Assembly (NCBI GenBank): GCA_947626785.1
Contig: CANQTO010000012.1
Location: forward strand, 1-63,063
DNA: 63,063 nt
Origin: an uncultured Oscillospiraceae bacterium
GTDB lineage: Bacteria > Bacillota > Clostridia > Oscillospirales > Oscillospiraceae
Reading direction: 5' to 3'
The position numbers were made by a program, and so were the translations under genes. This document shows, piece by piece, positions 60,198 through 63,063 of this stretch. Under the pieces are notes generated by a model that was given only the letters and a program-made list of their open reading frames with translations, searched no databases and was not told the origin of the DNA. Numbering within the stretch: the first letter of the stretch is position 1; every line of letters starts with the position of its first letter.

Positions 60198-60567
60198 TTC
60201 GGATATCAGCAAATCTATTCAGTTGACAAATTCCAGTTTGTGGTTCCGATGAAATGCCTATGATGTAAAACCGGCGGGCAGTTACTCTGTCCGCCGGTTT
60301 GCCATTTTACCGTGCCCTACGCGGGGCCTGTTCCCGCCGTTCCTGCTGCAAGATACCGTGGCAAAGGGCGGCCATGCGGCCGCCCTTCTTCTCGTTTTAT
60401 TCGCTTTTTATGTTCAAACCCCGCTTGATCGCCAGCTTGTAGTCTTTCTTTCATTTTTATCAAAGAATAGGTTTAGATGCGGAACGTTTAAATATATTTA
60501 CAGTGAAACACAAAAGGAGACCCAAAAAACGAATTTCCAGGGGCGGTGGGCAATGGTGCCGGTTCCA
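60198..60567. other. Gene-free stretch with terminators
   Basis: AAACCGGCGG...CCGCCGGTTT (60268-60300) ends the GNAT gene. AAGGGCGGCC-ATGC-GGCCGCCCTT (60363-60386) is a second strong hairpin, followed by CTTCTCGTTTT. 60503-60538 holds a decayed copy of the GTGAAACA/GGAGACCC repeat. No credible gene is seen on either strand. Confidence 0.6.
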
Positions 60568-60776
60568 GTGAAATCGTGCCTTTGGCACGGTGAAATCAAG
60601 GGCTGATGCCCTTGGTGAAATCGGCGCTTTGCACCGGTGAAATGAGATCCGTCTCCTCATCCTGCGAAGCAGGATTTCACCGCGAAGCGATTTCACCCCG
60701 CGTCAGCGGGATTTCACCCGTCCGAAGGACGGATTTCACGGTGAAGCCCCCGATGCTTTCGCATTGGGGGCTTCAC
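60568..60776. repeat. Array of mini-hairpins separated by GTGAAATC / GATTTCAC
   Basis: Left half: GTGAAATC at 60568, 60590 and 60615, and GTGAAATG at 60637, alternating with stems GTGCC-TTT-GGCAC, AAGGGC-TGAT-GCCCTT and an imperfect GGCGC-TTT-GCACC. Right half: stems CCTGC-GAA-GCAGG, CGC-GAA-GCG, CCCGC-GTCA-GCGGG and CCGTCC-GAA-GGACGG, each followed by GATTTCAC (60673, 60689, 60710, 60732). A final nested stem GTGAAGCCCCC...GGGGGCTTCAC (60741-60776) ends 1 bp before the tRNA fragment. Left and right separators are inverse, so the whole can fold as a branched cruciform. Every stem sequence differs. Not coding. Confidence 0.75.
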
Positions 60777-60777
60777 C

Positions 60778-60838
60778 TGGTGGACCTGAAGAGACTCGAA
60801 CTCTCGACCTCTCGGATGCGAACCGAACGCTCTACCAA
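60778..60838 (-). pseudogene. tRNA-Ala(CGC) 3' fragment, putative attachment site
   Basis: Minus strand reads TTGGTAGAGC, anticodon arm TTCGG-TTCGCAT-CCGAG with anticodon CGC, variable AGGTC, T arm GAGAG-TTCGAGT-CTCTT, acceptor 3' strand CAGGTCC, A, CCA. U70 in the acceptor fits the G3-U70 alanine identity pair. The 5' acceptor strand and D-stem are missing; the bases 5' of TTGGT do not pair. A 3' tRNA remnant with unrelated DNA on its 5' side is what integration into a tRNA gene leaves at the far end of an element. Confidence 0.75.
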
Positions 60839-60939
60839 CCGGAACAGTTATAACGGACTAAAAGAAAGGCAAAAAATGATGAAAAAAGGTCAAAAAGAAA
60901 GGAAAAAAGCGGAGAATGTTGTATGTTCTTGATTGAATA

Positions 60940-61383: not shown

Positions 61384-61430
61384 GTTTTTCCCCGGACACA
61401 TTCTGCAAAATTTTGAATGGAGAACAGTTT

Positions 61431-62329
61431 ATGAAAAACAAGAAATATTTTGATCCTCAGTCAGAGAACTTTTCGTTTTGTCGTGTCCCCCGGTCAATCT
61501 TAAAAGGCGAATCATGCCCCGGCCTGTCCATGCACACGAGGGTGCTGTACTGCCTGATGCTGGACCGCGTGGGCCTGTCTGCCAAAAACGGCTGGCGAGA
61601 TGAGGATGGCCGCGTGTTTATCTATTACCCGCTGGACGAGATCATGCAAGACCTGGCTTGTTCCCATACCAAGGCTTGCAGAGTGTTGGCAGAATTGGAA
61701 GAACGCAGAGGCTTCGGCCTGATCGAGCGCCGGAAACAGGGCCAGGGCAAGCCCGCCCGCATCTATGTAAAGCAGTTTGACGATCCCCAGCAGGAACAAA
61801 CTCCCACCGGCCATACAGAAGAAAGAAGTCAAGACTTCTCCGGGAGTGAAACCCGCAGCGCCCAAAATGAGAAGTCTGGACTTCCGGAAATGAGAAACGC
61901 AGACTTCCGGGAAAAAGCCGCAAGTAATAATTATAAAAACAAAACTGAAAAGAGTTATCTTGATCCATCTATCTATCCCCCGGAGGCGGATGGATGGATA
62001 GAGGACAAAGTGAAAGAGCAGATAGATTATCCGCTTTTGGCCGAGAGTTACCCCAATGACGACCCGGATGCCATTGTGGGGCTTATCTGCGATACCCTGT
62101 CCAGCCGGGCTGAAACCATCAAGATCGGCGGCGAGGCGATGCCCGCCCAAAAGGTAAAGGAGCGATTCAGAAAACTGGCTTTTGACCATGTAGCCTATGT
62201 GATCGATATGCTCAAGGAAACCGCCAGCAAGATCCGAAATATAAGGGCCTATCTGTTGACGGCGCTGTATAACGCGCCCTTGACGGTGGGTCCTTATTAC
62301 GCCGCCGCTGTGCGGCATGATTTTGGCTG

Positions 62330-62330
<1 letters not shown>
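61431..62330 (+). CDS. RepA_N-type replication initiator (DUF6017-like C-terminus)
   Basis: 299 residues. N-terminal winged-helix region YFDPQSENFSFCRVPRSILKGESCPGLSMHTRVLYCLMLDRVGLSAKNGWRDEDGRVFIYYPLDEIMQDLACSHTKACRVLAELEE is the RepA_N signature. A low-complexity linker (125-180) leads to a conserved C-terminal domain (AFDHVAYVIDMLKETASKIRNIRAYLLTALYNAP). Such proteins start replication of plasmids and of many integrative conjugative elements. ATG 61431 has GGAGAA 8 nt upstream. Confidence 0.85.

Positions 62331-63063
<733 letters not shown>

What the first reader, a model, noticed from the sequence alone, without database searches (positions are those of the whole stretch)
60568..60776. 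Hairpin array with GTGAAATC/GATTTCAC separators and inverted overall symmetry
Three or four GTGAAATC-type words lead hairpins on the left, and four GATTTCAC words follow hairpins on the right. Each stem is short (3-6 bp, GAA/TTT/4-nt loops) and different in sequence, so the separators are conserved while stems vary. The two halves are inverse and can fold into one branched structure. It ends 1 bp from a tRNA CCA end. It is not a CRISPR array (no spacers or cas genes) and not a known terminator form. It may be a protein- or recombinase-recognised multi-hairpin site. I have an impression that similar arrays occur in other gut Clostridia but cannot confirm it.
Basis: partly seen in the sequence, partly recalled or inferred. 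Interest (0 to 1): 0.85.

Follow-up and report, generated by a model that had tools for sequence, protein, structure and literature searches.

The report
Mobile fold-back hairpin repeat beside tRNA
This patch of small DNA hairpins beside a tRNA remnant belongs to a family of repeats that appear to jump around gut bacterial genomes, next to tRNA genes or inside the hairpins that end genes, and whose fuller copies carry one small protein also known from inserts in ribosomal RNA genes.

Summary
The array is real and far beyond chance. Both halves match Rfam's "Gut-1 RNA" (60.2 and 48.4 bits, opposite strands), so that "sRNA" is half of an inverted, fold-back DNA element. Matches occur in 33 of 99 genomes searched (own included; 27 over the cut-off), up to 39 in one. 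Stems differ but pair; the separator changes in concert on both halves (67 of 68 arrays). Near-identical copies have unrelated flanks. One family sits in loops of host intrinsic terminators (6 of 6 copies with a recognised right end; 0 of 88 controls); a sister species has an ordinary terminator at one such site. Fuller copies carry a PF05635 gene (four-helix bundle, 23S rRNA intervening-sequence protein). PF05635 genes have 7-nt repeats or hairpin arrays upstream in 52 of 70 (36 of 600 controls); in a second set, nearly all from other phyla, 22 of 32 have inverted-repeat flanks (3 of 306 controls). I read the window copy as a gene-less, tRNA-adjacent member of a mobile-element class that includes rRNA intervening sequences. 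Not shown: movement, the catalyst, protein binding, or how the window copy inserted. RVT_1 and Y1_Tnp each lacked a match in several array-bearing genomes.

The parts
60568..60643 (+). B-half (far half): three hairpins (60575-60589, 60597-60614, 60622-60636) between four separators GTGAAAT(C) at 60568, 60590, 60615, 60637
   Evidence: Rfam Gut-1 match 60566-60648 +, 48.4 bits, E 2.3e-8, just under the gathering score of 50
60644..60660 (.). middle segment; holds most of the closing strand of the A-half (60643-60653, pairs with 60728-60738)
   Evidence: inverted repeat I11; one search used such a strand to orient arrays (70 of 79 gave a clear orientation)
60661..60739 (-). A-half (tRNA-side half): four hairpins (60661-60673, 60681-60689, 60697-60710, 60718-60732) with separators GATTTCAC at 60673, 60689, 60710, 60732
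   Evidence: Rfam Gut-1 match 60669-60741 -, 60.2 bits, above the gathering score
60740..60777 (.). T1: 17-bp terminal hairpin between the array and the tRNA end; in other copies this slot holds a terminator-like or palindromic hairpin
   Evidence: I3, 94% complementary
60778..60841 (-). 3' part of a tRNA-Ala(CGC) with CCA, 5' end missing; 98% identical over 60 nt to an intact tRNA-Ala of G018, 92% over 63 nt to the own-genome tRNA-Ala on contig C9
60475..60528 (.). 54-bp far flank that recurs (85%) at the own-genome tRNA-Ala locus C9:1955-2008, where a different ~150-bp hairpin-rich stretch lies between it and the tRNA: brackets the far limit of the array module

Best explanation
The feature is a non-autonomous (PF05635-less) copy of a mobile fold-back repeat element. 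SHOWN: the Gut-1 family is an inverted element, T1 hairpin - A-half - closing strand - B-half, with near-identical copies that have unrelated flanks; one family is inserted in loops of host intrinsic terminators; many copies lie right behind tRNA genes, on the tRNA's strand; fuller copies carry a PF05635 four-helix-bundle gene directly after the B-half; and PF05635 genes sampled without regard to repeats mostly sit behind tandem 7-nt repeats or hairpin arrays, many of them between inverted repeats, in several phyla; the 7-nt separators of the hairpin arrays occupy the same place. INFERRED: the PF05635 protein recognises the repeated 7-nt word, held unpaired between hairpins in a folded single strand; it or a partner brings the ends together; and the element inserts at hairpin-forming targets (terminator loops, tRNA 3' ends, rRNA helices) through a single-stranded DNA or RNA stage. 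Copies without the gene, like the window's, would be moved in trans (one PF05635 match was found in the genome, on contig C77).
For: Repeat family: Gut-1 in 33 of 99 genomes (own included), up to 39 matches in one; the second own-genome copy (C20) matches the window over 203 aligned columns (187 identities, 92%) with different flanks. Near-identical copies with unrelated flanks: L067/L068/L070 94-99% over 310-343 bp in one genome; L038/L128 97% over 240 bp in two genomes. L003/L004, two families, 97% over 240 bp, but both behind tmRNA, so part of that is shared flank. Terminator loops: 6 of 6 copies of family S1 with a recognised right end, 0 of 88 mismatched flank pairs at the same score; empty site in sister species G141. 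tRNA side: 24 of 71 oriented arrays have a same-strand tRNA ending within 130 nt, 0 an opposite-strand one. PF05635: 14 of 16 such ORFs in array-selected loci have two or more separator-like 6-mers within 260 nt upstream (biased, no control); chosen by the gene alone, strict array detector 14 of 70 versus 1 of 247 control pieces, heptamer or array upstream 52 of 70 versus 36 of 600, flanking inverted repeats 31 of 67 versus 5 of 199; second set, nearly all other phyla, 22 of 32 versus 3 of 306. Pfam assigns PF05635 to 3 of 3 proteins scanned. Same T1+array with and without the gene: L376 and L042, 92% over 238 bp. Coxiella rRNA intervening sequence: two or three tandem heptamers before the S23 ORF and a 28-bp terminal stem (PMC4990558, passages).
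Against: No movement was observed. The window copy has no PF05635 gene beside it, and its far boundary is only bracketed. Terminator-loop insertion is demonstrated for one family plus single loci; a broad test over 76 array flanks gave 10 of 76 versus 14 of 451 at score 14, and an exact-match version over arrays without a tRNA gave 6 of 41 at 9 nt (controls 9%) and 3 of 41 at 12 nt (controls 0.8%), over tRNA-side arrays 4 of 28 at 9 nt (controls 8%) and 0 of 28 at 11 nt, so tRNA-side copies follow another rule or have decayed. The strict heptamer-or-array call found only 8 of 29 genes of the second set, where an 8-nt period is also raised (4 of 29). Upstream coding genes show no strand bias (21 against, 19 with). 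No catalytic partner is known. The array detector itself requires matching words on both halves, which favours the 67 of 68.
Confidence: 0.75

Rival explanations
1. It is a structured non-coding RNA gene (Rfam Gut-1, listed as sRNA) with a function of its own in the cell.
For: Rfam classes RF01706 as gene/sRNA; stems covary.
Against: Both halves match on opposite strands, copy number reaches 39 matches in one genome, copies have unrelated flanks, and one family sits inside terminator loops: behaviour of a repeat, not of a gene. Covariation is also expected for DNA hairpins.
Confidence: 0.08
2. It is the recombination site of an integron-like gene-cassette system: arrays anchored behind tRNAs, with promoter-gene-T1-array cassettes inserted between direct copies.
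For: L113, L095 and L417 show tRNA - repeat unit - gene - repeat unit in direct orientation, the two units 97% (218 bp), 95.5% (247 bp) and 89% (162 bp) identical; the longest downstream ORF points away from the array in 43 and towards it in 19.
Against: No integrase was identified (none was searched for); upstream genes show no strand bias; direct copies around PF05635 genes were found in 6 of 70 loci, some only 36-40 nt long; simple insertion of a palindromic repeat at two nearby sites gives the same picture.
Confidence: 0.15
3. REPIN-like: a hairpin repeat moved by a Y1 (RAYT/IS200-type) transposase.
For: Paired inverted hairpins, many copies per genome; Y1_Tnp has a match in 10 of 18 array-bearing genomes tested.
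Against: Y1_Tnp has no match in the other 8: G000 and G063, G071, G074, G078, G083, G086, G087.
Confidence: 0.03
4. Retroelement moved by a host reverse transcriptase, with PF05635 as the Avd-like RNA partner.
For: PF05635 resembles the DGR accessory protein Avd (PMC10053308, passages); targets are hairpins of transcribed genes; RVT_1 has a match in 8 of 18 array-bearing genomes tested.
Against: RVT_1 has no match in the other 10: G012, G063, G071, G074, G075, G078, G080, G083, G086, G093, 7 of them at least 95% complete.
Confidence: 0.12
5. A transcription-termination or attenuator structure kept for host regulation.
For: Terminator-like T1 hairpins next to tRNAs; alternative pairing between the closing strand and the first hairpin.
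Against: Presence is patchy between related species at what reads as the same tRNA locus: G012 has an array behind tRNA-Ala(CGC), G008 does not, and both show the same sequence on the tRNA's 5' side.
Confidence: 0.07

Closest known systems
Rfam RF01706 Gut-1 RNA
   Same: Sequence and structure match of both halves.
   Different: Rfam models one half only, as an sRNA; here it is half of an inverted DNA repeat element.
23S rRNA intervening sequences (IVS) with S23 / PF05635 ORF
   Same: As a class: terminal inverted repeat, heptamers before the ORF, same protein family, insertion in a hairpin of a transcribed gene (PMC4990558, passages).
   Different: The window copy lacks the ORF and lies behind a tRNA end, not in rRNA; its repeated words are separated by hairpins.
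MITEs / non-autonomous insertion elements
   Same: Short, multi-copy, inverted structure, no gene; partner copies with a gene exist (L376 versus L042).
   Different: Built of heptamer/hairpin arrays; no target-site duplication identified; no known transposase family.
REPINs with RAYT (recalled)
   Same: Paired inverted hairpins in extragenic space.
   Different: Separator conserved and stem variable; no Y1_Tnp match in the own genome.
Integron attC sites and cassettes (recalled)
   Same: Structured sites between genes in several loci.
   Different: Multi-hairpin architecture; integrase not tested.
TAACTGA heptamer direct repeats of Beggiatoaceae, Cyanobacteria and Bacteroidetes (PMC4679880: abstract, outline and passages)
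   Same: Tandem 7-nt repeats, patchy across distant phyla; the abstract says no mechanism of transmission is evident.
   Different: Its main text holds no 'S23' or 'four-helix'; any link is my suggestion and was not tested.

Membership tests
Rfam Gut-1 (RF01706) | covariance-model score at or above 50 bits | tested here: met
   A-half 60.2 bits; B-half 48.4 bits, just under
Rfam Gut-1 (RF01706) | is a transcribed small RNA | not testable with these tools
   no expression data held
PF05635 heptamer/hairpin elements (class described here) | inverted arrays built on one 7-nt word | tested here: met
PF05635 heptamer/hairpin elements (class described here) | PF05635 gene in the copy itself | tested here: not met
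   the only PF05635 match found in the genome is on contig C77; the window copy can be a gene-less member only
PF05635 heptamer/hairpin elements (class described here) | inserted in or directly behind a hairpin or RNA gene | tested here: inconclusive
   abuts a tRNA CCA end through the T1 hairpin, but the tRNA is truncated and no empty site is known
23S rRNA intervening sequence | located inside a 23S rRNA gene | tested here: not met
   the Rfam scan of the window lists no rRNA
REPIN/RAYT | Y1 transposase encoded by the genome | tested here: not met
   no Y1_Tnp match in G000 (draft genome, 99% complete)
Diversity-generating retroelement | reverse transcriptase next to the accessory protein | tested here: not met
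   G000 has two RVT_1 matches (contigs C6, C2), the PF05635 match is on C77; 10 of 18 array-bearing genomes have no RVT_1 match
Integron cassette array | IntI-type integrase | not tested
   no search made
CRISPR array | repeats of constant sequence with unique spacers and cas genes | tested here: not met
   intervening segments are hairpins, not spacers: 231 of 317 with stems of 4 bp or more, 10% after shuffling; cas genes not searched

The most novel reading that the evidence does not exclude
PF05635 four-helix-bundle genes outside diversity-generating retroelements, rRNA intervening sequences included, are the autonomous members of one unrecognised superfamily of hairpin-targeting mobile elements with ends built of inverted heptamer repeats and a single ~115-residue protein without a known catalytic domain; Gut-1 hairpin arrays are its elaboration in gut Clostridia, and many orphan heptamer repeats of bacterial genomes are its footprints.
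Probability: 0.5. Interest if true: 0.95.

Novelty: new variant of a known kind. Interest (0 to 1): 0.83.

Why it matters
The function and origin of rRNA intervening sequences were called unclear more than 25 years after their discovery (PMC4990558), Gut-1 has, as far as I know, no assigned function, and patchy heptamer repeats had no evident mechanism (PMC4679880). If one small protein family explains all three, each becomes testable: which word the protein binds, how terminator loops and tRNA ends are chosen, and what cuts and joins. It would also be an unusually small mobile element, moving into hairpins of transcribed genes, with copies seen in two (unverified) gut phage records.

Tried and rejected
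CRISPR, REPIN/RAYT and a DGR-type retroelement were considered and set aside. An integron-like reading was pursued through L113, L095 and L417 and kept as a rival. The displaced-tRNA idea (a T-arm-like GTTCGA motif beyond the far end of 15 of 71 arrays) was left unresolved. A first regex for PF05635 ORFs was wrong (1 hit) and was corrected (16). A first heptamer control used neighbours of PF05635 genes and was contaminated (24 of 151 at lag 7, against 25 of 70); it was replaced by 600 ORF starts from loci chosen by a GTGAAAT pattern, which may themselves hold arrays. In one search, 4 of 10 candidate S1 placements had weak right ends (alignment score 20-22, in the wrong orientation by my reading) and show no stem; the 6 of 6 refers to those at 49 or more, a cut chosen after seeing the table; the 88 control pairs use flanks of all 10. 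Five loci that repeat the window or C20 copy were left out; of the 79 arrays then listed, two (simple repeats) were dropped and six could not be oriented before the count of 71, which therefore does not contain the window copy. Rows include 38 spurious 5-nt spacings from overlapping words; only spacings of 12-40 were used. In one search two of the five measures (pairs with double changes, further pair types) do not exceed shuffles. Plasmid and phage DNA searches with the window matched only a stretch of about 60 nt at the tRNA. Nine paper searches listed no paper that, by title and abstract, joins Gut-1 or heptamer repeats to PF05635 elements other than the Coxiella one; the library lacks most subscription journals, and the original Gut-1 paper was not read.

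Full report
WHAT IS THERE. Reading 60568-60777: the left half has three hairpins between four GTGAAAT(C) words; the right half has four hairpins with four GATTTCAC words; then comes a 17-bp hairpin, T1, and without a gap the CCA of a 5'-truncated tRNA-Ala(CGC) on the minus strand. The right half is enclosed by a closing strand (60643-60653 with 60728-60738). GTGAAATC is found 7 times in the window, all inside the array, 1.36 expected. DNA fold z-score -9.0.

IT IS RFAM GUT-1, TWICE. Rfam RF01706 matches the right half at 60.2 bits on the minus strand and the left half at 48.4 bits on the plus strand. A search of 99 genomes of the same genus and order, the own one included, gave matches in 33 (27 over the cut-off), up to 39 in one genome (at most 42 candidates per genome were scored). 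In the printed part of that list matches often come as a + and a - neighbour: the catalogued RNA is half of an inverted unit. The one control genome that rang (E. coli) did so below the cut-off.

ANATOMY ACROSS COPIES. A detector that asks only for a repeated 6-mer followed by its reverse complement at hairpin-like spacing found 118 candidate arrays in 101 of the 347 loci then held (some of them overlapping views of one place), and 0 in 60 shuffled loci. After leaving out five repeat views, 79 bore separator-like words and 71 could be oriented. The order is T1 hairpin - A-half - closing strand - B-half. Separator words differ between families (TGAAAT, TGATAT, TGAAGT cores) but agree between the two halves in 67 of 68 arrays (the detector itself favours agreement, so the weight lies in the different words). 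Of 317 inter-separator segments, 253 are distinct and 231 form a stem of 4 bp or more (10% after shuffling); for 6 bp or more it is 33% against 0.2%. For the 39 distinct 13-nt segments, 96.4% of cells pair, with 79 double changes against 24.0 in shuffles (0 of 500 as high) and no comparable register when slid; two of the five measures of that tool do not exceed shuffles. These segments come from different positions of different arrays, so this shows kept pairing, not descent column by column.

IT IS MOBILE IN PATTERN. The own genome holds a second copy on contig C20, 187 of 203 aligned columns identical, with other flanks. L067, L068 and L070, three loci of one genome, share 310-343 bp at 94-99% and then diverge; L038 and L128, two genomes, share 240 bp at 97%; L003 and L004 (two families) share 240 bp at 97%, but both lie behind tmRNA. 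Two records listed as unverified phage carry a PF05635 gene behind a hairpin array (L448, L449).

WHERE IT INSERTS. Twenty-four of 71 oriented arrays have a same-strand tRNA ending within 130 nt before the first separator, none an opposite-strand one. One family, here called S1, has recognisable ends; all 6 copies with a true right end (341-354 bp; five in G083, one in G075) lie between two arms that form a locus-specific intrinsic-terminator stem, against 0 of 88 mismatched flank pairs (4 further weak placements were set aside). In sister genome G141 the orthologue of one host gene ends in an ordinary terminator with a GAAA loop at the place where G083 holds the 353-bp element. The terminator sequences of the two species have diverged, so the site is matched by gene and position. 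Loci L067, L070, L128, L043 and L041 show the same by inspection, but a blanket test over all arrays is weak (10 of 76 versus 14 of 451; arrays without a tRNA 6 of 41 at 9 nt with controls at 9%, 3 of 41 at 12 nt with controls at 0.8%; tRNA-side arrays 4 of 28 at 9 nt with controls at 8%, 0 of 28 at 11 nt). For the tRNA-side class, to which the window copy belongs, only presence and absence can be shown: behind tRNA-Ala(CGC), G012, G006 and the window have arrays, G008 has none, G018 has other sequence, and the intact tRNA-Ala of the own genome (C9) has a different hairpin-rich stretch before the same 54-bp flank.

THE PARTNER GENE. In array loci the first gene behind the B-half was repeatedly a PF05635 four-helix-bundle protein; 14 of 16 such ORFs had two or more separator-like 6-mers within 260 nt upstream, a biased sample without control. 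I therefore fetched 70 PF05635 loci by the gene alone: of the 106 matches, the 30 given as loci and 40 more that I picked from the list, mostly leaving out places already seen with arrays. A strict inverted-array detector rang upstream in 14 of 70, against 1 of 247 pieces of the same loci. Reading the other 56 by eye showed many arrays on other words (GCTAAAT, TGAATTG, GTGATGT) or tandem 7-nt repeats. Scored blindly, 52 of 70 have one or the other, against 36 of 600 control ORF starts; in this set only periods of 7 and 14 stand out. Upstream and downstream flanks are inverted copies in 31 of 67 (score 18 or more), 5 of 199 mismatched. Same-strand tRNA lies upstream in 18 of 66, opposite in none. 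A second set holds 30 loci from 42 genomes reached through pattern loci (33 of 42 had a match) and 3 plasmid loci; 32 were usable, nearly all from other phyla (L440 and L450 are Bacillota): 22 have inverted flanks at score 16 or more, against 3 of 306. There the strict upstream call is only 8 of 29; at a looser cut of the 7-nt period 11 of 29 against 16 of 600 controls, and a period of 8 is raised too (4 of 29). Pfam assigns 3 of 3 scanned proteins to PF05635; the only solved relative found by sequence is 2rld.

LINK TO KNOWN THINGS. In passages of PMC4990558 the Coxiella rRNA intervening sequence has a 28-bp terminal stem, two or three tandem heptamers before the S23 ORF, and an origin called unclear, with old proposals of mobility. 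PF05635 resembles Avd (PMC10053308, passages). So gene, heptamers, inverted ends and a hairpin target recur in a setting far from gut Clostridia. I found no paper that joins them (limited library, judged by listings).

HOW IT LIKELY WORKS. The separator is the most constant part of an array and lies between stems whose sequence is free but whose pairing is kept: what a protein that reads an unpaired or hairpin-framed 7-nt word in a folded strand would require. Targets are hairpins of transcribed genes. I infer that PF05635 protein binds the words, assembles the ends, and that insertion uses a folded single strand, DNA or RNA. RVT_1 has no match in 10 of 18 array-bearing genomes tested and Y1_Tnp none in 8 of 18, so neither looks required; drafts can miss genes. 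The catalyst is unknown.

THE WINDOW COPY. No PF05635 match lies in its contig; the genome's single match is on contig C77, behind tRNA-Pro, between two direct heptamer fold-back units. The tRNA piece resembles the tRNA-Ala of another species (98% over 60 nt) more than the own one (92% over 63 nt), so tRNA fragment and array may have arrived together. That is inference.

Noticed in passing
window 61413-63063: Right of the tRNA fragment lie a replication-initiator-like ORF (61413-62330) and the start of a serine-resolvase-like ORF (62753 to the contig end), so the tRNA piece may mark the end of an integrated element; gene identities are from reading the translation, not from a search.
   Followed up: no
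L417 (G000 contig C77, 4800-7140): The genome's only PF05635 match sits behind tRNA-Pro between two heptamer fold-back units (89% identical over 162 bp); the second is preceded by a sequence like the tRNA 3' end (CCACTCGGACCA).
   Followed up: partly
L034 and L035 (G000 contigs C59, C27): Heptamer-type (GTGAATA/GTGAAGA) inverted repeats, one just after a tRNA 3' end, lie next to weak Gut-1-like hairpins: both repeat styles side by side.
   Followed up: no
L348-L351, L353, L355, L357, L358; L368, L374, L384: A second PF05635 class sits right after the same host genes in several same-genus genomes (C-terminal sequences look like dGTPase and MiaB, recalled), with TAGTTTT- or GGAATTC-type heptamers: possibly fixed copies.
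   Followed up: no
L058, L072, L201: Arrays lie near terminase-like genes (by reading the translations); phages may carry the repeat between species.
   Followed up: no
L001, L002, L004, L006, L012, L347 and others: A T-arm-like motif GAGTTCGAATTCATACG and, in several, an ATAGACAA motif recur beyond the far end of tRNA-side arrays (T-arm motif in 15 of 71 by a loose pattern); origin unexplained.
   Followed up: partly
L445, L078 (Akkermansia and Akkermansiaceae records): PF05635 genes flanked by hairpin-like arrays on other words (TTTCACG; GGTTATATC), so such arrays may not be confined to Clostridia.
   Followed up: partly
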